Below, piece after piece: positions 2,319 to 30,426 of a stretch of DNA of 64,000 nucleotides. The translations under genes were made by a program, and so were the position numbers. The stretch spans positions 124,001 through 188,000 of the forward strand of contig DUAT01000078.1 of assembly GCA_012960755.1 (NCBI GenBank), given 5' to 3'. Numbering within the stretch: position 1 is the first letter of the stretch; each line of letters starts with the position of its first letter. The notes under the pieces were generated by a model. That model saw only the letters and a list, made by a program, of their open reading frames with translations. It was not told the DNA's origin and ran no database searches. Source of the stretch: Gammaproteobacteria bacterium. GTDB lineage: Bacteria > Pseudomonadota > Gammaproteobacteria > Pseudomonadales > Azotimanducaceae_A.

Positions 2319-3047
2319 TTGAAAACACTACGTTGTTCAATAGATTCCATTGAATTTTACAATCACGATACCCGCCAGATATTCCTCAACATCCCGGCAG
2401 GTGAATCCATAAACTACCGCGCCGGGCAATATCTGGAGATGTTGTTGCCCGACCGGAAGTGTCCTTTCTCAATTGCATCTGCCCCTTCACTTAAAAACCA
2501 GATTGAGCTGCATGTCAGGCCGACGCCAGACTCGGAAGACTCTGATGCTATAGAAAAACTACTGGATAGGGCTGACTATTTAGACATCGAAATTCCTAAA
2601 GGGGACTGCTTCCTTAACCGTGCGCCCACCGGTCCGTTACTGCTGATGGCAGCCAGTACAGGCATAACGCAGATGAAGAGCATTATTGAAGAGATCATCC
2701 CGGGAGGCCTTCCGCATCCTGTCTACCTGTATTGGGGGGTAGTATCAGACAGAGACCTGTATCTCAACGAATTGTGCGAATCCTGGGTCAGGGAACACGA
2801 AAATTTTCACTATATTCCTGTCGTTAGTGACCCTGATACTTCACCTGACTGGAACGGTAAAACAGGTCTGGTGGGTGAAATCGCGTTGCAGGATTTCAAA
2901 GATGTTTCGCGCCTCACTGCTTACGTCAGTGGCGGCCCGGGTATGGTTTACGCCACCCTGGATAAGTTTGTCGAAAAGGGGATGCCAGAAAAAAACATGT
3001 TCTCGGATATATTCTCCTACGCACCCAGGGAACCTCTGATTAAGTAG
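2319..3047 (+). CDS. NAD(P)H-flavin / ferredoxin-NADP-type reductase (Fre/LuxG-like)
   Basis: An FAD/NAD-binding oxidoreductase of 242 residues, slightly longer than Escherichia coli Fre (233). The N-terminal barrel carries RAGQYLEMLLP and a CPFSIAS flavin motif near residues 48-54. The nucleotide-binding half has LLLMAASTGITQMKSI (about 107-122) and SGGPGMVYA. It probably passes electrons from NAD(P)H to free flavin or a partner; the partner is unknown. The start is TTG, since no ATG fits the family N-terminus, and it lies 16 bases after the rho stop. The final codons (REPLIK) are encoded inside a dispersed inverted repeat at 3028-3086, so the natural C-terminus was probably altered. Confidence 0.85.
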   Translation: MKTLRCSIDSIEFYNHDTRQIFLNIPAGESINYRAGQYLEMLLPDRKCPFSIASAPSLKNQIELHVRPTPDSEDSDAIEKLLDRADYLDIEIPKGDCFLNRAPTGPLLLMAASTGITQMKSIIEEIIPGGLPHPVYLYWGVVSDRDLYLNELCESWVREHENFHYIPVVSDPDTSPDWNGKTGLVGEIALQDFKDVSRLTAYVSGGPGMVYATLDKFVEKGMPEKNMFSDIFSYAPREPLIK

Positions 3048-3086
3048 ATATTTGGTGCGGCATACCGACCTTGATCAGAGGTTCCC
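3028..3086. repeat. Short dispersed inverted repeat (copy 1)
   Basis: The left arm GGGAACCTCTGATTAAG (3028-3044) is matched by CTTGATCAGAGGTTCCC (3070-3086), 16 of 17 positions complementary, with a 25-base centre. The left arm overlaps the last codons and stop of the flavin reductase gene; the right arm ends just before the ribosome site of the next gene. A 21-base stretch (3033-3053) recurs exactly at 14028-14048, and a related copy lies at 26577-26632. It looks like a small non-autonomous element. Confidence 0.7.
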
Positions 3087-3104
3087 AAGAGAACAGTAAA
3101 CACC

Positions 3105-3117
3105 GGAGAAACCCCTG
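3105..3117 (+). promoter_or_regulatory. Ribosome binding site deciding a CTG start
   Basis: GGAG at 3105-3108, six bases before CTG at 3115-3117. This site is the main argument for a CTG start of the first carboxyltransferase, because the coding-like sequence begins here and no standard start codon occurs until more than 75 codons into the conserved domain. Confidence 0.5.
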
Positions 3118-4599
3118 GAAGAAAAGCTGATTCGCCAAATACAGGAAGCTCGGGAACGTGCAATACAGGTTCCCCAGGCTCCCGGCGCCCATCAACTCCA
3201 CGCGAGAGAACGTCTTGCACACCTGCTAGATCCGGCGAGCCTGGTCGAATATGGCATTCTAGCCGGCGCCAGTTCCCGTGAAGAAGACGAGTCAACTGCA
3301 GATGGTCTTATCGCCGGTGCCGGGTGCATCGCCGGGCAACCAGTGGTCGCCGCATCCTATGATCATACGGTAGCAAAGGGCACCCAGAGCGAAAGGAACC
3401 AACGCAAACTCGGGCGCCTGATTTACCTTGCCAACAAACATCGCTGGCCACTGATTCTTTTCGTCGACGGGGAGGGTGCTCGACCGGGAGACCCCCAACC
3501 CGTGCCTCCGATTGTTATCGCACCAAGGGGTCGCTGGGATGTCTACGACGGGCTTGCAGAGTTGTCAGGTTGGGCACCGACTATTGCGATTATCAGCGGT
3601 CGCGCTCTCGACGGAAATGCAGGAATTGCCATGTTGTCCGATTTCGTGATTGCGACTCGCACTTCTACCATCGGTTCCAGGACTACGACCGGGACTGTAG
3701 AGCGACCGGTGCAGGACTATGCAAAAACCGGTAATATCGATCTGATAGTAGATGACGAGATGGCAGCGATCACCGCGGCGCAACAATACCTGTCGTATTA
3801 TCATCAAAATCCAACTGAAGGCAAAGCCTCCACCAACCATGACAAAATCGCTTCGATCATCCCGGAAAACAGGCGCCGCCCCTACGACATGAGAAAAGTC
3901 ATAACCGCCGTTGCCGATGCCGACAGTGTGCTGGAACTGGGAGCAAGTTGGGGCCGGTCCATGCTGACGGTCTTTGCTCGTTTGAAAGGAAGATCCGTCG
4001 GTATCTTCGCCAATCAACCCAAGTCACCCCTGGCGGGAGCCATCGATTCAGAGGCTGCAGACAAGGCTGCCAGGTTTGTTGAACTCTGCGACAGCTATGA
4101 GTTTCCACTGATTTCCTTTATCGACAATCCAGGCTACATGGTTGGTCCGCAGGCAGAGCGTGAGGGCATGGCAAGGCATCACGCCCGACCTCTGGCGGCA
4201 TTGCATCACCGCACCGTACCCCTCTGCTCGGTGCAAATACGCAAGGCCTATGGCCTGGGCCCTTATGCGATGTCGGGCTGGGGGTCAGGTAGATCTGTTC
4301 CTGAGTTACGCCTCGCATGGCCCACGGTAGAATCCGGTGGAATGTCCCTTGAAGGCGCCGCTTACCTGGTGAAACGCAAAGAGATTCTTGCTGCGAAAAA
4401 CAAAGCCGACGCGATGGCGATCCGTGACGCTTACGCGGACAAAATGCGCGACCAGACCTCAGGCTTGCGGGCTGGTAGAAGCTTCATGTTCGACGACATT
4501 ATTCACCCGCGGGAAACCCGGGATTGCATCAGTGCCATTCTTGAACGTATTCCAAGAATATTCGGGGAAACAAAAAAACACCCCGTCGATCCTCACTAA
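3115..4599 (+). CDS. Biotin-dependent acyl-CoA carboxyltransferase subunit (first of tandem pair), CTG start
   Basis: Member of the propionyl/methylcrotonyl-CoA carboxylase beta (AccD5-like) family, which moves the carboxyl group from carboxybiotin to an acyl-CoA. About 494 residues from 3115. The crotonase-like N half has AGAGCIAGQPVVAASYD, and the C half carries FIDNPGYMVGPQAE and YGLGPYAMSG. No ATG, GTG or TTG exists between the in-frame stop at 3097-3099 and a GTG at 3343, yet family-like sequence (HARERLAHLLDPASLVEYG) is encoded from about 3115. A CTG at 3115 with GGAG six bases upstream is the likeliest start; an ATT at 3130 is the alternative. The conserved ARERL and glycine-rich regions are present. 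The substrate is unknown. Confidence 0.75.
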   Translation: MEEKLIRQIQEARERAIQVPQAPGAHQLHARERLAHLLDPASLVEYGILAGASSREEDESTADGLIAGAGCIAGQPVVAASYDHTVAKGTQSERNQRKLGRLIYLANKHRWPLILFVDGEGARPGDPQPVPPIVIAPRGRWDVYDGLAELSGWAPTIAIISGRALDGNAGIAMLSDFVIATRTSTIGSRTTTGTVERPVQDYAKTGNIDLIVDDEMAAITAAQQYLSYYHQNPTEGKASTNHDKIASIIPENRRRPYDMRKVITAVADADSVLELGASWGRSMLTVFARLKGRSVGIFANQPKSPLAGAIDSEAADKAARFVELCDSYEFPLISFIDNPGYMVGPQAEREGMARHHARPLAALHHRTVPLCSVQIRKAYGLGPYAMSGWGSGRSVPELRLAWPTVESGGMSLEGAAYLVKRKEILAAKNKADAMAIRDAYADKMRDQTSGLRAGRSFMFDDIIHPRETRDCISAILERIPRIFGETKKHPVDPH

Positions 4600-8533: not shown

Positions 8534-9283
8534 CTAATCACTCGCATTGTTTACTACCCTGAGCACAGCCTCCAACATAGATTCATTCTGTTGATTCGCC
8601 GCAAGCCAGACTTTATCAAAACCACTCTTAATTGCCATCATTTGTAGTCGTCTTGAAGGTACAATGAGTTTCAGTTGAGAATAGTCCGGCACCAACTCCA
8701 TCAACCTGTCTATGGCCTCACCACTATACACCGGCACTATCACCTCCGCCTGTAAATCGCGGTTAAAATGACCCCCATAGTCAATCGCTTCACGTCTGTA
8801 CACTTCCAGGTAGTCAACCGTCGCTCCACGTTTGGTCAACGTTTCCCTGAGTAACTCCCGGCCCCCCACACCACGCACAATCAAAACCTTGCCTACCTGC
8901 CCGGAGAGGAGTGGTAGTGCCAGTAACCCCTCTGATGACGCCAGTTGAGGCTGCTGGCTTTCAATGCCGTTGTCTCTCAACCTCTTTGCCGTGGCAGGGC
9001 CGACAGCGTACCAGGACAATGACAGTGGCCATTGCGGCCAATAGTCGTTCAGTCCCGGCAATCCATATTTAACCGCATTCTGGCTGATAAAGACGATATG
9101 ATCGTACCGGTCCAGCTCGAGGATTTTCCGTTTCGATGCTTCTGATAACTTCACTGTGACAGGATTTAACAGGGTCCTGCTAACCACACCGGTGTCGTCA
9201 GGCAAGTCCAGCGAGCGTCTTAAACAGGATTCAAAGACCGCATTCTGATTGTCGCTTCGGGTCAACAGAATCGTTCGGTCCAT
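8534..9283 (-). CDS. hemD: Uroporphyrinogen-III synthase
   Basis: Closes the linear hydroxymethylbilane ring with inversion of ring D. The family is weakly conserved, but the two-lobed alpha/beta layout is visible: the N-terminus MDRTILLTRSDNQ, then DHIVFISQNAVKYGLP, the LIVRGVGGRELLRETL segment, and VEVYRR-like YLEVYRREA. I chose ATG at 9283 (GGAG just upstream), giving 249 residues, rather than an in-frame start at 9331, which would overlap hemC and add a non-family extension. It follows hemC in the operon after about 31 bases. Confidence 0.92.
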   Translation of the reverse strand: MDRTILLTRSDNQNAVFESCLRRSLDLPDDTGVVSRTLLNPVTVKLSEASKRKILELDRYDHIVFISQNAVKYGLPGLNDYWPQWPLSLSWYAVGPATAKRLRDNGIESQQPQLASSEGLLALPLLSGQVGKVLIVRGVGGRELLRETLTKRGATVDYLEVYRREAIDYGGHFNRDLQAEVIVPVYSGEAIDRLMELVPDYSQLKLIVPSRRLQMMAIKSGFDKVWLAANQQNESMLEAVLRVVNNASD

Positions 9284-9314
9284 ATTAGCTCCGCGGCTTT
9301 TCTTGTATTCCTTA

Positions 9315-10235
9315 TCAGGAATGCGAATCAATTAATTTATCGGCACCCTGGGCTATCATTTGGATGGTGAGAGATTTCGCCATCTCACGCGCGTCTGATC
9401 TGGGTCCTTCAGCGGCGAGTTTAATAGTCACCCCGCCTGTCGTATCGCTGACGTAAGTATTCAGCTGTATATTAGCGCCGACGATTTCTGCGAACGCCGC
9501 AACCGGCAGATTGCAGTTCGCACCCAGCCCGATCGACACTTCTCGTTCACAGGTGACGCAATCGTATGTTTCAGGGTCATTAATCGCATCGAGTAAGGCA
9601 ATCAAGTCTGCACTGTCCGCCCTGCATTCGATGCCAACAGCGCCCTGTCCGGCAGCAGGAATACTAACAGTGGTGGAGATCGCCTGGCTAATTCTGTCAC
9701 CCAGCTGCAAACGCTTGAGGCCTGCGGCGGCGAGGATTATCGCGTCATAGTGATCCTCGTCCAGTTTACGCAATCGGGTATCGACATTGCCCCTCAATTC
9801 TTCGTAAACGAGGTCTTCTCTGGCGAGTTTCAATTGTAACCGCCGCCTCAGGCTAGAGGAGCCGATTTTAGCCCCTGCTGGAAGCTCCTCCAGGTTGTCA
9901 TATTTGTTGCAGACCAGAGCATCACGTGGGTCTTCTCGCTCGCACATGGCGCTGATGGTGAGTTCCGGTGGAAGTACCGATGGGACATCTTTCATCGAAT
10001 GCACCGCGATGTCAGCCCTGCCATCGAGTAGTGCAACCTCAAGCTCCTTGACGAACACGCCCTTGCCACCGATCTGGCTGAGCGGTGAACGTTTATTTCG
10101 GTCACCTTCGGTTGTCATTCCAAGGATCGTAACTTCAAGCCCTGGATGCGCTGTTTCTATTTGTTGTTTGACGTGATGTGCCTGCCACAGGGCAAGTGCG
10201 CTTTGACGTGTCGCAATCCTCAGTGAATCAACCAT
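9315..10235 (-). CDS. hemC: Porphobilinogen deaminase (hydroxymethylbilane synthase)
   Basis: Polymerises four porphobilinogen units on a covalently bound dipyrromethane cofactor. The 306 residues show the family start SLRIATRQSALALWQA, catalytic D83 in HSMKDVP, the arginine-rich GSSSLRRRLQL, and the cofactor-anchoring cysteine C241 in GLGANCNLPVA. It is the first gene of hemC-hemD-hemX-hemY. Its promoter region is squeezed into the 72 bases after algR, where a TATAAT lies in the loop of the algR terminator. Complete and ordinary. Confidence 0.97.
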   Translation of the reverse strand: MVDSLRIATRQSALALWQAHHVKQQIETAHPGLEVTILGMTTEGDRNKRSPLSQIGGKGVFVKELEVALLDGRADIAVHSMKDVPSVLPPELTISAMCEREDPRDALVCNKYDNLEELPAGAKIGSSSLRRRLQLKLAREDLVYEELRGNVDTRLRKLDEDHYDAIILAAAGLKRLQLGDRISQAISTTVSIPAAGQGAVGIECRADSADLIALLDAINDPETYDCVTCEREVSIGLGANCNLPVAAFAEIVGANIQLNTYVSDTTGGVTIKLAAEGPRSDAREMAKSLTIQMIAQGADKLIDSHS

Positions 10236-10248
10236 AATGCATTACACA

Positions 10249-10276
10249 CAAAAAAGGCGGCATTATAGCCACCTTT
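10249..10276 (-). terminator. Intrinsic terminator of algR, with a TATAAT in its loop
   Basis: Read on the minus strand: AAGGTGGC, loop TATAAT, GCCGCCTT, then a run of T. The eight-base stem contains one T-G pair. It lies about 30 bases after the algR stop and directly before hemC. The loop equals a perfect -10 box that could serve hemC; the matching -35 region is weak. Confidence 0.7.
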
Positions 10277-10307
10277 ATGGTCTTTCATGTAAATTAAACC
10301 GTTAGTT

Positions 10308-11045
10308 TTACAGGGATTGCACCAGACGTCTCAACCCTGAAACGTGCCTTCGACTGACGTCCAGTCGATCTTCAACACCCTTCATCCTGACGCGATAATG
10401 ACCGCGGGTGTCTCGCTCCAATCCTTCGAGGTGATCCGTCATCACCAGTGCGTTTCGATGGATTCTGACGAGTCGATCACCAAATTCGTCTTCAAGGTCA
10501 CGCAGCGTATCGTCAATCAAAACCTCACCGCCTTCATGGCGAACGGTGACGTATTTGTGATCCGCCTGGAAAAAGCGCACTTCCGTCAGCGCAATAAGCT
10601 CAATTCCACGCCGGGTCTTGGCGCTGATATGTGTTCGGGCTTTCTGTTTTGGCATCTCTTCGCCGGTGACGGACAGCGCCTGAACCTTGTTTACGCGACC
10701 TATCTTGCCCAGGGTAGCGACCAGGGTCTCTCTGCGAACAGGCTTCAACAGGTAACCGGCAGCATTGACATCAAATGCTTCGACGGCGTGCTCACCAAAA
10801 GCGGTGCAGTAAACCACTGCTGGTGGGGATGGTAAATCAGCAAGTTGATGACCCGCCTCGATTCCATCAGTTCCCGGCATTCGAATGTCCAGCAACACAA
10901 TATCCGGCTCAACTTCAATGGTCTTGCGTATGGCTTCATCACCGGACGCTGCTTCACCAATTACGTCGTAGGCATCTAAAGTACCAATCATGCGCACTAA
11001 TCGTTCCCGCGCTAATTTTTCGTCGTCAACTACCAGCACTTTCAT
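10308..11045 (-). CDS. algR: LytTR-family response regulator (AlgR-like)
   Basis: DNA-binding response regulator of 245 residues. The receiver domain has the acidic pair D7/D8 and phospho-acceptor D53 in VLLDIRMPGTDG. The C-terminal LytTR domain (about 140-240) includes VRFFQADHKYVTVRH and RIHRNALV. In Pseudomonas AlgR with its sensor AlgZ (FimS) controls alginate, twitching motility and virulence. The partner kinase gene lies just upstream, and hemC follows, the same order as in Pseudomonas. Target genes in this organism are unknown. Confidence 0.9.
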   Translation of the reverse strand: MKVLVVDDEKLARERLVRMIGTLDAYDVIGEAASGDEAIRKTIEVEPDIVLLDIRMPGTDGIEAGHQLADLPSPPAVVYCTAFGEHAVEAFDVNAAGYLLKPVRRETLVATLGKIGRVNKVQALSVTGEEMPKQKARTHISAKTRRGIELIALTEVRFFQADHKYVTVRHEGGEVLIDDTLRDLEDEFGDRLVRIHRNALVMTDHLEGLERDTRGHYRVRMKGVEDRLDVSRRHVSGLRRLVQSL

Positions 11046-19451: not shown

Positions 19452-21500
19452 ATGAAATCTCGAACACAAGGCCTTAGCGCCATGACTCCGCTTCTATTCA
19501 GCGCATTTCTGTTAACTGCCTGCGGTCAACAGGCAACCGAAGAAGCAGCAGAAGCCTCTGCGACCCCTGCAGTTGTAGCGCAGAAGGCGCAGGTTCTGGA
19601 GGATATTATCGGCATGCAGGTTGATGACTTCCAATTGCTGGACCATAGGGGTGCTGCCCATAGCCTGAGCTACTACAGCAATGCGTCAGCCATTGTCCTC
19701 ATGACCCAGGGCAATGGCTGTCCGATCGTTCGCAACGCCATGCCAGCCCTGCGTGTCGTGCGAGATGAATATGCGGACAAAGGTGTTAAGTTTTTTCTGC
19801 TGAATTCCAATATTCAGGATAACGCCGCCAGCATCACAGCCGAGGTTGAGGAGTTTGGCTTCGATATGCAGGTATTGGTCGACGAGTATCAGCTGGTGGG
19901 AGAATCCCTGAATGTCACGCGTACCGCAGAGATATTTGTTATCGATCCCTCCAGTCGGCGGGTTGTCTACCACGGTCCTGTCGATGATCGCCTGACTTAC
20001 GAAAATCAGAAGGCAGAGGCAGAACATAAATACCTGGTTGATGCCCTGGATGCAGTGATTAACGGTGTACAGATCACAGTCGCCCAGGTAGACGCACCAG
20101 GCTGCCTGATTAACTTCCCGGAACGCGGGCAGCAGGCACAACACGCAAATATTTCCTACCACGATACCATCGCACCCATCCTGGAAGAAAACTGCGTCAG
20201 CTGTCACCAGGAAGGGGGTATCGGTCCCTGGGCGATGAACAGCTATGCAATGGTCACGGGTTTCGCTCCCATGATTCGTGAAGTCATTCGTACCGACCGC
20301 ATGCCTCCATGGCATTCAGACCCTAACATCGGCCACTTTATTGGCGATCGAAGCCTTGATGCCGAGGAAATCAAAACCCTGGTACATTGGATTGAAGCCG
20401 GTGCCCCGCGTGGCGAGGGTTCAGATCCACTGGCGGAGCCGCGCGAGCCAATTCAGGACTGGCCCCTTGGCCAACCCGACATCGTCCTGGATATCCCTGC
20501 GTTCGAGGTTCCTGCGACGGGTATCGTTGATTACCAGCGGCCAGTGATTGCCAATCCACTCACAGAACCCAGGTGGTTACGTGCCAGCACCGTCAAAGTA
20601 GGCTCCCGGGAATCAGTACATCATGTGCTCACTGGACATATGAAAGAGATACCCGAGAATGGGAAAAGCAGTGAATCTCGTTGGGGTGCATCAGTGGGGG
20701 GTTATGCTGTCGGTGCCGAGTCTTTTATTTCCCGGGACAATGTCGGGACGCTGATCCCGGTGGGTGGCGTTATCGGCCTCCAAATACACTACACGCCCTT
20801 TGGAAAGTCCGTCACAGATCGCTCCCAGATTGGCCTGTATTTCTACAAGGACGACGAATTGCCAGGCCTGATGCAACGTGCCACCGTGATCCTGGATGCA
20901 TCAATTGATATTCCACCGGAAACTGCCCGTCACAAGGAAACTGCCTACGTGGAATTTCCCCGCGATGCACTGCTCTATTACGCATTTCCCCATGCGCATT
21001 ACCGGGGGCAGTCTTCGACCCTTTCGATTCGTTATCCGGATGGCTCCGAGGAAATGCTGCTTTCACTGCCCAGATACGACTTTAACTGGCAACGTGCCTA
21101 TGGATTTGAAGAGCCCATTGATATCCCAGCTGGTTCAAAACTGGTAGCTCGATATGAATACGACAATTCGGCCCAGAACTTTGCCAATCCCGACCCGTCT
21201 CTGCGTATAACCTGGGGCGAGCAGTCACATGAAGAAATGTTGTTCACCGCGCTCAGTTATCGATGGAAGGAAGAGACAACCGATAGTCTTAAACCTGAGT
21301 TCGCGAAGATGCTGAATTCAACCCGACTGTTTGGCATGTTGGATGACAACCTCGACGATATCCTCCAGAAGAGCGAATTAAAAGGTCGGCCAGGTAAACG
21401 CCTGGCACAAAATTTCGACAAACTCGATCGCAATGGCGATGGTGGCCTGACTCGCGAGGAATACTCTGCCATCTTTGTTGCCAGCAGCCGAGCTGACTAG
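19452..21500 (+). CDS. Lipoprotein with redoxin, c-type heme, copper-monooxygenase-like and EF-hand segments
   Basis: A 682-residue secreted protein with four joined parts. The signal peptide ends in lipobox LLTAC (C24), then an Ala/Glu-rich linker. A redoxin fold (about 48-205) has a single cysteine C90 in GNGCPIVRNA. A c-type heme site CVSCH (C248, C251, H252) lies in a small cytochrome segment. A PHM/DBM-like region (about 345-630) keeps the spaced copper ligands HH (390-391), H446, HxH (514, 516) and a Met in HEEM (M596). A C-terminal EF-hand is DRNGDGGLTREEY. A copper- and heme-dependent periplasmic oxidoreductase is likely; the substrate is unknown. It stands alone, between the HAD gene and thrC. 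Confidence 0.8.
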   Translation: MKSRTQGLSAMTPLLFSAFLLTACGQQATEEAAEASATPAVVAQKAQVLEDIIGMQVDDFQLLDHRGAAHSLSYYSNASAIVLMTQGNGCPIVRNAMPALRVVRDEYADKGVKFFLLNSNIQDNAASITAEVEEFGFDMQVLVDEYQLVGESLNVTRTAEIFVIDPSSRRVVYHGPVDDRLTYENQKAEAEHKYLVDALDAVINGVQITVAQVDAPGCLINFPERGQQAQHANISYHDTIAPILEENCVSCHQEGGIGPWAMNSYAMVTGFAPMIREVIRTDRMPPWHSDPNIGHFIGDRSLDAEEIKTLVHWIEAGAPRGEGSDPLAEPREPIQDWPLGQPDIVLDIPAFEVPATGIVDYQRPVIANPLTEPRWLRASTVKVGSRESVHHVLTGHMKEIPENGKSSESRWGASVGGYAVGAESFISRDNVGTLIPVGGVIGLQIHYTPFGKSVTDRSQIGLYFYKDDELPGLMQRATVILDASIDIPPETARHKETAYVEFPRDALLYYAFPHAHYRGQSSTLSIRYPDGSEEMLLSLPRYDFNWQRAYGFEEPIDIPAGSKLVARYEYDNSAQNFANPDPSLRITWGEQSHEEMLFTALSYRWKEETTDSLKPEFAKMLNSTRLFGMLDDNLDDILQKSELKGRPGKRLAQNFDKLDRNGDGGLTREEYSAIFVASSRAD

Positions 21501-26126: not shown

Positions 26127-26555
26127 CTACTTTGTGGAATCAACCATGTAATCAACAATGGCTTTAAGGTCATCGTCTGAGCAGGTAAAACACATTCCCT
26201 TGGCAGGCATGCCAGGGGGCATACCATTGATGACGCTACTGTACAAAACCCCCATACCCTTTGCGATTCTCGGCGCCCAGGAAGCCACGTCACCCAGCTT
26301 TGGAGCCCCGGCCACCCCAATTGCGTGACAGGTTGAGCAGGTTTTCTTGTAGTTTGCTTCTGCACCACCGCCACTGACCGCAACAACTGACGCCCCGTTG
26401 CTCGACCCGGCAGCACAACTATCGCCTTCGATACAGACGGAACCTACCTTGTGAATACGCTCTATGATACTGGCTTCTACTGTATCGGCGAACACAACAT
26501 CTGCGGTCAATATGTTTACCCATGTGGCAATCAATAGCATCCCGATTTTTTTCAC
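26127..26555 (-). CDS. Cytochrome c5
   Basis: A periplasmic monoheme electron carrier of 142 residues. The signal peptide ends about residue 23 (VVFA). The heme site is CSTCH (C73, C76, H77). The axial methionine is probably M116 in PGMPAKG, and the C122-C125 pair (CFTC) matches the disulfide typical of cytochrome c5. A low-complexity glycine/serine/alanine linker (about 48-66) precedes the heme domain. It probably feeds electrons to a terminal oxidase. A dispersed repeat copy lies directly upstream. Confidence 0.9.
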   Translation of the reverse strand: MKKIGMLLIATWVNILTADVVFADTVEASIIERIHKVGSVCIEGDSCAAGSSNGASVVAVSGGGAEANYKKTCSTCHAIGVAGAPKLGDVASWAPRIAKGMGVLYSSVINGMPPGMPAKGMCFTCSDDDLKAIVDYMVDSTK

Positions 26556-29036: not shown

Positions 29037-29690
29037 TCAGGATCCCGCTTTTGCTTTTCGTTCTTGCTCAATCAAATAGGTTGCGATCCTGAGCATATCG
29101 GCGTTACTCCCTGCCATACCACTTTCAATCCGGTACTTGCCATTAACAATCAGCGCAGGCACGCCGCCAGATCGATAAGCTTTCCCTTTTGAGTCAGCCT
29201 GTTGCAAGCTCGCCCGTACACCGAACGAGCTATATGTCTTGGCAAAATCTTCCGGTTCAATGCCAAAGTCTGCAAAAAAACCTGCCATCAATTGTGGTGT
29301 ATTAAGTCTTCGCTGCTCTTTGTGCATTGCATTGAATATCTGCGTATGGACCCTGTCGAGGACCTTTAACGCGACCGCCGTGTAATACGTCTGCGCATAA
29401 ACCTGGTAATCCTTATTCCAAACTGCCGGTGTACGCGTAAAGATTACGTCGTCTTCCAGAGCCTGTGTCCAGGCACTGATCATCGGTTCGAATTGAAAAC
29501 AATGTGGGCATCCATAAGAAAAGTACTCTGCGACTTCGATCTTATCCGGATTACGAGTCCTAATTGGAATTTGCAACTCAACGTAGTGGGTCCCTTCCTC
29601 GTACAGCATCGTTTCTGCTGAGGCGCCCAGTGGAACCAAACAACTCGTCAGTAAAATTACGGCTACTGAAACCATCGACCTTAATCTCAT
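29037..29690 (-). CDS. dsbA: Thiol:disulfide interchange protein DsbA
   Basis: Periplasmic oxidase that puts disulfides into secreted proteins. It has 217 residues: a signal peptide to about A25, thioredoxin fold with inserted helical domain, active site CPHC (C61, C64) and cis-proline P178 in GGVPALIV. Partner DsbB is not in the window. It may support the many CxxCH cytochromes here indirectly, by acting on their apoproteins. It is read towards the ihfB-like gene and lies downstream of the cytochrome c4 gene in the same direction, as in Pseudomonas. Confidence 0.95.
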   Translation of the reverse strand: MRLRSMVSVAVILLTSCLVPLGASAETMLYEEGTHYVELQIPIRTRNPDKIEVAEYFSYGCPHCFQFEPMISAWTQALEDDVIFTRTPAVWNKDYQVYAQTYYTAVALKVLDRVHTQIFNAMHKEQRRLNTPQLMAGFFADFGIEPEDFAKTYSSFGVRASLQQADSKGKAYRSGGVPALIVNGKYRIESGMAGSNADMLRIATYLIEQERKAKAGS

Positions 29691-29823: not shown

Positions 29824-30426
29824 TTATTTTAATCCGTAGATGTAGCTCGCCACGGCAGCAATCTCATCATCTGAGAGATCCATCGCGGTAACTCGCATCA
29901 TTTTTGCATCACCGTCGTTGTGCCGGTCACCCTGGCGAAAAGCCCTGAGTTGTGCCTCTGTATACTCCGGCCATTGCCCCGCAAGCGAAGGGAATCCTGC
30001 CAGGTTATTGCCTTCACCAGATGGCAGGTGACAGGCTGTACAGGCGGCTATCTCTTTACGTTTGACCCCGGCCCGATACACCGCTTCGCCAAGCTCCACC
30101 AGGTCAGGGTTGGCTGCGCCCACTTTTGCTTTTTGACCAGCATAATACGCAGCAAGGTCTTCAAGATCCGTATCCGACATGGCATCTAACTGGCCTAGCA
30201 TCAGGGGTGCATCCCGTTCGCCGCTCTTCATATCTCTTAATTGTTTCAGTAAATACTTGGAATGTTGGCCTGCAATATTTGGAAAAGCGCCTGCCAGGCT
30301 ATTGCCGTCCTCGCCATGACAGGTGGCACATAATCGAGTCAGGCCTTTACCTCGGCCAGCGTCACCGGCTGCGAAGACCATAAAGGAGGATAACAAGAAT
30401 ACGATGGTGATAATGAATCTATACAT
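29824..30426 (-). CDS. Cytochrome c4, diheme
   Basis: A 200-residue periplasmic or membrane-attached diheme electron carrier made of two similar cytochrome c halves. The signal peptide ends at about residue 20 (FAAG). The first heme site is CATCH (33-37), the second CTACH (129-133), each followed by a conserved methionine region (MLGQLDAMSD, and MMRVTAMDLSDDE). It probably donates electrons to a terminal oxidase, possibly the aa3 enzyme encoded later. The position beside dsbA and engB matches Pseudomonas. Confidence 0.93.
   Translation of the reverse strand: MYRFIITIVFLLSSFMVFAAGDAGRGKGLTRLCATCHGEDGNSLAGAFPNIAGQHSKYLLKQLRDMKSGERDAPLMLGQLDAMSDTDLEDLAAYYAGQKAKVGAANPDLVELGEAVYRAGVKRKEIAACTACHLPSGEGNNLAGFPSLAGQWPEYTEAQLRAFRQGDRHNDGDAKMMRVTAMDLSDDEIAAVASYIYGLK

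What the first reader, a model, noticed from the sequence alone, without database searches (positions are those of the whole stretch)
19452..21500. Four-part lipoprotein: redoxin + c-type heme + PHM/DBM-like copper site + EF-hand
One 682-residue protein has a lipobox (C24), a redoxin fold with a single CP-type cysteine (C90) and no CxxC, a CxxCH heme site (248-252), and the spaced ligand pattern HH (390-391), H446, HxH (514/516) and Met (596). That order and rough spacing match the two copper sites of peptidylglycine/dopamine monooxygenases. An EF-hand ends it. A heme could feed electrons to a copper monooxygenase in the same chain instead of ascorbate.
Basis: partly seen in the sequence, partly recalled or inferred. 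Interest (0 to 1): 0.75.

Follow-up and report, generated by a model that had tools for sequence, protein, structure and literature searches.

The report
Bacterial heme-linked copper monooxygenase
A bacterial lipoprotein carries the two-copper, oxygen-using domain best known from the animal enzymes that make noradrenaline and amidated peptide hormones, with a heme domain attached where the animal enzymes rely on vitamin C; its activity and substrate are untested.

The parts
19452..21500 (+). whole gene, 682-aa protein
19452..19523 (+). residues 1-24: signal peptide with lipobox LTAC, lipid-anchor cysteine C24
   Evidence: read from the sequence; not conserved across the family
19608..20120 (+). 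residues 53-223: redoxin domain of the 3u5r/2cvb/2ywi kind
19719..19721 (+). C90, first redoxin thiol
   Evidence: C in 42 of 79 relatives
20103..20105 (+). C218, second redoxin thiol
   Evidence: C in 41 of 79, together with C90
20133..20444 (+). residues 228-331: c-type heme domain
   Evidence: Cytochrome_CBB3 in 50 of 53 members at E<=1; fold of the isolated domain not matched
20193..20207 (+). CVSCH 248-252, heme attachment
   Evidence: 79 of 79
20301..20303 (+). M284 of MPP, candidate second heme ligand
   Evidence: 79 of 79; fixed spacing of 32 in 80 of 80 rows
20469..21287 (+). residues 340-612: PHM/DBM-type copper domain
20619..20624 (+). H390, H391: predicted CuH ligands (PHM H107, H108)
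   Evidence: 79 of 79; in register
20787..20789 (+). H446: predicted CuH ligand (PHM H172)
   Evidence: 79 of 79
20991..20999 (+). H514, H516: predicted CuM ligands (PHM H242, H244)
   Evidence: 79 of 79
21237..21239 (+). M596: predicted CuM ligand (PHM M314)
   Evidence: 79 of 79
21342..21377 (+). EF-hand-like loop 1, residues 631-642
   Evidence: D631 72, D635 61, E642 70 of 79
21426..21461 (+). EF-hand loop 2, residues 659-670
   Evidence: D659 67, E670 68 of 79; gap at 659 in 10; Pfam EF-hand below cut-off

Best explanation
An exported and, in this organism, lipid-anchored copper monooxygenase of the PHM/DBM fold. Two coppers (CuH: H390, H391, H446; CuM: H514, H516, M596) activate O2 to hydroxylate a C-H bond of an unknown substrate outside the cytoplasm. 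The adjacent c-type heme (C248/C251/H252, probably M284 on the other face) passes respiratory electrons one at a time to the coppers, the job that ascorbate does for the animal enzymes. The redoxin domain is an add-on whose thiol pair is dispensable, and the EF-hand pair an optional calcium-binding tail. Shown by computation: domain identities, predicted fold, ligand conservation, and joint invariance of heme and copper motifs. Inferred: metal and heme occupancy, direction of electron flow, monooxygenase chemistry. Unknown: substrate.
For: PHM/DBM fold. Sequence bridge: family to distant bacterial heme-PHM proteins, hhalign probability 100, E 1.1e-62, residues 229-603, and those to PHM at 9.2e-25 and DBH at 5.8e-22. 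Ligands and CxxCH 79 of 79. Thiols lost in 37 of 79 and EF-hand in 10 of 79 with heme and copper intact. Core without redoxin: L097 and L095; 118 of the 120 listed relatives of L097 have CxxCH. PHM needs one electron from ascorbate per copper (PMC6123673, passages).
Against: No biochemistry. Pfam copper domains stay below cut-off for this protein and the N-terminal copper family hits only 3 of 53 members, best E 0.072. The heme domain modelled alone matches no solved fold significantly. Of the 120 domain-length hits listed, 97 show no complete CxxCH; that search can only return proteins of about 155-490 aa, and by eye the starts printed begin inside or after the heme domain, so I take them as partial or miscalled, but a heme-less form on long contigs (for example P0147, P0204) was not excluded. 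No ligand or heme-copper distance was measured. Soluble ascorbate or another reductant is not ruled out.
Confidence: 0.66

Rival explanations
1. Peroxide-driven copper enzyme: H2O2 is the real co-substrate, the heme only primes copper to Cu(I), and the redoxin manages peroxide.
For: H2O2 can replace O2 and reductant in PHM (PMC6123673, passage). A redoxin sits in the same chain.
Against: The recalled peroxiredoxin motif is absent, and the redoxin thiols are lost in 37 of 79 relatives and the whole domain in L097 and L095.
Confidence: 0.12
2. Not an oxygenase: a copper- and heme-binding redox sensor, copper carrier or electron-transfer protein that kept the PHM ligands.
For: No substrate pocket or product is known; the residues recalled as PHM's peptide anchor are not kept (R240, N316, Y318 correspond to F512, F598, A600).
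Against: All ligands of both sites, including the CuM methionine, are 79 of 79; nine copies in each of two genomes suggest varied substrates rather than one housekeeping carrier.
Confidence: 0.1
3. The redoxin dithiol, not the heme, is the electron source for the coppers; the heme has another role.
For: C90 and C218 are kept or lost together (41 both, 37 neither, 1 C90 only), as expected of a working disulfide pair.
Against: 37 of 79 relatives keep heme and copper motifs without the thiols; L097 and L095 have no redoxin.
Confidence: 0.05
4. A bacterial peptide-amidating enzyme (PHM in the narrow sense).
For: Same fold and copper ligands as PHM.
Against: Positions recalled as PHM's peptide-carboxylate contacts are not conserved; no lyase partner was noticed beside the gene, though none was searched for by profile.
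Confidence: 0.03

Closest known systems
Peptidylglycine alpha-hydroxylating monooxygenase, PHM (1phm, 1opm, 3mll)
   Same: Two-part beta fold over about 270 residues; both copper sites with HH, QxH, HxH and EM in the same order.
   Different: No heme, redoxin or EF-hands in PHM; uses ascorbate (PMC6123673). Here there is no cysteine after residue 332 in 80 of 80 rows and the recalled peptide-binding residues are not kept.
Dopamine beta-hydroxylase, DBH (4zel)
   Same: Only PDB sequence found by the copper-domain profile at E<=10; second Foldseek hit.
   Different: DBH has an N-terminal DOMON domain (recalled) instead of a c-type heme domain.
Distant bacterial heme-PHM proteins (L097, L095, P0242-P0361; names among sources: Polyangium, Myxococcaceae, Sandaracinaceae; some called 'Copper type II ascorbate-dependent monooxygenase')
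   Same: CxxCH, MPP, HH, QxH, HxH and EM in the same order.
   Different: About 400-470 aa as a rule, no redoxin or EF-hand found in the two tested, conserved cysteines in the copper domain.
Redoxin-fold proteins 3u5r, 2cvb/2ywo, 2ywi
   Different: Stand-alone domains without heme or copper parts.
LPMO supplied by a heme domain, as with cellobiose dehydrogenase (recalled)
   Same: Works alike in idea: a heme passes electrons to a copper monooxygenase.
   Different: Unrelated fold and single copper (recalled); no membership claimed.

Membership tests
PHM/DBM copper monooxygenase superfamily | CuH site of three His (HH and QxH) | tested here: met
   H390, H391, H446 79 of 79; in register with L097, whose family is in register with PHM
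PHM/DBM copper monooxygenase superfamily | CuM site HxH plus Met | tested here: met
   H514, H516, M596 79 of 79
PHM/DBM copper monooxygenase superfamily | two-part beta-sandwich fold | tested here: met
PHM/DBM copper monooxygenase superfamily | Pfam gathering score of PF01082 and PF03712 | tested here: inconclusive
   this protein 14.5 bits against 23 for PF03712 and no PF01082; PF03712 in 50 of 53 members at E<=1, best 1.5e-7, PF01082 in 3 of 53
PHM/DBM copper monooxygenase superfamily | geometry of bound copper, ascorbate-dependent hydroxylation | not testable with these tools
   no coordinates, no biochemistry
PHM in the narrow sense (peptide hydroxylation) | residues for the peptide carboxylate, R240, N316, Y318 (recalled) | tested here: not met
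   F512, F598, A600 in this protein; family columns mainly F/Y, Y/F and A/S/R
c-type cytochrome domain | CxxCH | tested here: met
   79 of 79
c-type cytochrome domain | cytochrome c fold with second axial ligand | tested here: inconclusive
   M284 79 of 79 at fixed spacing; isolated model without heme has no match at E<=0.001; weak profile hits: hydrazine synthase alpha 0.0015, cytochrome c-550-like 0.0017 from the distant family
Redoxin superfamily | thioredoxin-like fold | tested here: met
Peroxiredoxin | PxxxTxxC motif (recalled) | tested here: not met
   MTQGNGC before and at C90; C90 not conserved
EF-hand | acidic loop positions 1, 3, 5 and 12 | tested here: met
   D631/N633/D635/E642 and D659/N661/D663/E670; Pfam EF-hand scores below cut-off for this protein

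The most novel reading that the evidence does not exclude
Bacteria hold an old and varied lineage of PHM/DBM-type copper monooxygenases in which a tethered c-type heme, not ascorbate, reduces the coppers. The animal hormone and neurotransmitter enzymes would be a later branch that lost the heme and took up ascorbate, and the redoxin-bearing branch here one that expanded (nine copies in each of two genomes) to oxidise C-H bonds of environmental compounds outside the cytoplasm. No rooted tree with eukaryotic sequences was made.
Probability: 0.3. Interest if true: 0.82.

Novelty: new variant of a known kind. Interest (0 to 1): 0.64.

Why it matters
PHM and DBM are the model enzymes for two-copper C-H hydroxylation, where the route of electrons to the coppers is a long-debated point (PMC6123673 passages, and recalled). 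A natural version with a covalent heme beside the copper domain would let electron delivery be followed by optical spectroscopy within one chain, without a small reductant. It would also add an enzyme class to the bacterial copper proteome: the table of a 2020 review (PMC7435645, passage seen) lists PHM and DBM in the eukaryote column only. Where sources name relatives of this protein in the listed hits, they say redoxin or peroxiredoxin or hypothetical, so the copper domain is easy to overlook.

Tried and rejected
Operon logic: clustering of ORFs in up to 6-kb flanks of 80 loci gave no cluster in more than 9 of 80; that top cluster was not annotated. A PQQ-dehydrogenase-like gene lies near in 4 of 80 (L003, L004, L005, L057), and a relative of it lies between two copies in L100. 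In 40 control stretches of 20 kb from nine genomes that carry the gene, two PQQ seeds hit 0 and 1 (801 kb of flanks against 800 kb of control). Other seeds, flanks of 80 against controls of 40: DUF6152 3 and 0, DUF6644 2 and 0, the 'PDxxGxW' family 5 and 0, a neighbouring redoxin 1 and 0, DUF3089 1 and 1, a TonB-receptor seed 6 and 1. The seeds were taken from the target side, so the test leans towards association. It hints that a hydroxylated product may be oxidised by a dehydrogenase; it does not identify a substrate.

Heme domain alone: modelled and searched, no match at E<=0.001, best row a cytochrome c-554 at E 2.9. The model has no heme; I hold this inconclusive.

One seeming exception to ligand conservation, L019, was my ORF picker reading a wrong frame; corrected. 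L060 was dropped before the final counts: its redoxin part and heme-copper part lie in different frames.

Domain-length search: 97 of the 120 listed hits have no complete CxxCH. Told under evidence against; not followed up.

Survey: the copper-domain profile matched 3 of 398 genomes of the phylum of G006 at E<=1e-5, one of them the centre itself; the distant profile matched 5 of 398 at 1e-8, two of which (G053, G104) match only its heme part in short frames. In the family of G003 it was 11 of 60. PF03712 matched 3 of 41 genomes of the family of G006 and 0 of 14 control genomes. Plasmids: 16 records match, all within query residues 45-239, none over 80% of the query.

Literature: ten searches. 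Among the titles and abstract starts listed I saw none on a bacterial heme- or redoxin-fused PHM/DBM protein; some searches listed only the best 20 of 259, 15 of 60 and 15 of 36. The library lacks most subscription journals and holds no preprints, so absence in print is not shown. Passages only were seen of PMC6529398, PMC7435645, PMC3494510, PMC10371230, PMC6123673. [quoted passage not shown]

Full report
What is there. The ORF at 19452-21500 (+) encodes 682 aa, with AAGGA before the ATG. It seems to stand alone: a HAD hydrolase gene ends 105 bases upstream, and a threonine synthase gene lies downstream on the other strand. An identical public protein is named 'redoxin family protein', and several listed relatives of 69% identity 'peroxiredoxin'. 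That search scored 7993 candidates and found 3415 relatives at E<=0.001; 120 were listed.

Domains. Pfam gives Redoxin (54-188, 45.5 bits, over cut-off) and, below cut-off, Cytochrome_CBB3 (241-289), EF-hands (about 650-675) and Cu2_monoox_C (500-576, 14.5 bits against 23). Over 53 aligned members, each scanned alone at E<=1, Cu2_monoox_C is found in 50 (best 1.5e-7), Cytochrome_CBB3 in 50, EF-hand_5 in 42, and the N-terminal copper family in only 3 (best 0.072). The N-terminal half of the copper domain therefore rests on the evidence of the next paragraph.

Conservation. Of 80 loci from genome contigs (the best 80 of 577 confirmed, more existed), L060 has its parts in two frames and was dropped; L019 was first read in a wrong frame by my script and then corrected. 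In the remaining 79, C248, C251, H252, M284, P285, P286, H390, H391, H446, H514, H516, E595 and M596 are 79 of 79 and Q444 is 73 of 79. H252 to M284 is 32 residues in 80 of 80 rows, the window's included, which fits a Met second ligand. Ligand spacing in this protein is 55, 68 and 80 residues against 64, 70 and 70 in PHM; in the family the first varies from 36 to 60. C90 is C in 42, S in 20, D in 16, T in 1; C90 and C218 are both present in 41, both absent in 37, and C90 alone is present in one (L061). On a tree of the heme-copper part the C90 label needs 6 changes, 5 forced by well supported branches. From residue 332 on there is no cysteine in 80 of 80 rows, unlike eukaryotic PHM, which has disulfides (recalled). 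Position 659 of the last EF-hand is a gap in 10 of 79. The loci were found with two patterns from this family, one in the copper part and one in the redoxin, so these numbers describe relatives of 43% identity and up and are not a blind sample.

Core without redoxin. L097 (414 aa) and L095 (467 aa) have CxxCH, MPP and a copper domain, and no redoxin or EF-hand match in Pfam. A search with L097 found 486 relatives; of the 120 listed, 118 have CxxCH, 120 HH, 120 HxH, 119 QxH or ExH, and 114 an acidic-acidic-Met motif; the two without CxxCH start at or just before MPP and look truncated. Because the query has a heme part and the search favours full-length similarity, this does not show how many bacterial PHM-like proteins lack heme. 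Against it: among 120 domain-length hits listed, 97 have no complete CxxCH. That search returns only proteins of about 155-490 aa, and by eye most of the starts printed lie inside or behind the heme domain; I take them as partial or miscalled but did not check their upstream DNA.

Mechanism. PHM takes one reducing equivalent from ascorbate at each copper; the coppers are 11 A apart and O2 binds at CuM (PMC6123673 passages). In the family here heme and copper motifs are the parts never lost in 79 rows, and CxxCH precedes HH by 138-143 residues. The simplest reading is that respiratory electrons reach the c-type heme and pass to CuH and CuM. Genes for two c-type cytochromes lie elsewhere in the window (26127-26555 and 29824-30426); such genes are common, and this is no evidence of partnership. 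The redoxin thiol pair may serve assembly or redox sensing and is dispensable in many relatives. The recalled PHM residues that hold a peptide carboxylate are not conserved, so peptide amidation is unlikely.

Range and context. The copper-domain profile matched 3 of 398 genomes in the phylum sample, the centre included, and 11 of 60 in one family, with nine matches in each of G457 and G468; four of these lie within about 53 kb and four within about 31 kb. Neighbours differ. PQQ-dehydrogenase-like genes lie near in 4 of 80 loci, and one between two copies in L100; the control used seeds from the target side and is biased, so this stays a hint.

Comparison and novelty. By predicted fold, ligands and sequence bridge this is a member of the PHM/DBM superfamily; it is not PHM in the narrow sense, and by motif not a peroxiredoxin. 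In ten searches of one open library I saw no listed paper on such a fusion, and a review table of 2020 lists PHM and DBM for eukaryotes only. Yet precomputed Pfam tags mark the distant bacterial relatives, and some sources name them 'Copper type II ascorbate-dependent monooxygenase', so bacterial members are on record in databases. Hence: new variant of a known kind, with a bold but untested reading that heme-driven bacterial enzymes are the older form.

Noticed in passing
G457 and G468 (L099-L103): Nine copies of the copper-domain family in each of two genomes of about 2.6 and 2.9 Mb, four within about 53 kb and four within about 31 kb: a striking expansion.
   Followed up: partly
L100:5043-12849: Two copies flank a PQQ-dehydrogenase-like gene (8620-10695), with two genes like DUF6152 (by eye) just upstream.
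   Followed up: partly
L099:2902-3576 and L102:15346-16008: A separate redoxin-like gene (by eye) follows directly behind a copy of the family.
   Followed up: partly
L003:826-5831: Row of same-strand genes ahead of the family gene: DUF3089 (alpha/beta-hydrolase-like), PQQ-dehydrogenase-like with cytochrome c, an unassigned lipoprotein-like gene and two DUF6644 genes.
   Followed up: partly
window 20133-20444: The heme-domain profile's best PDB match is the alpha subunit of hydrazine synthase, E 0.0015 in all but weak per stretch.
   Followed up: no
window 26127-26555, 29037-29690 and 29824-30426: Single-CxxCH c-type cytochrome, DsbA-like protein and two-CxxCH c-type cytochrome on the minus strand, general periplasmic redox genes.
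   Followed up: no
L097:1-1176 and 2773-3708: The redoxin-free relative lies between a TonB-dependent-receptor-like gene and an FG-GAP/ASPIC-like gene (by eye).
   Followed up: no
L060:6001-7850: In this Ponticaulis contig the redoxin part and the heme-copper part lie in different frames: a broken gene or an assembly error.
   Followed up: no
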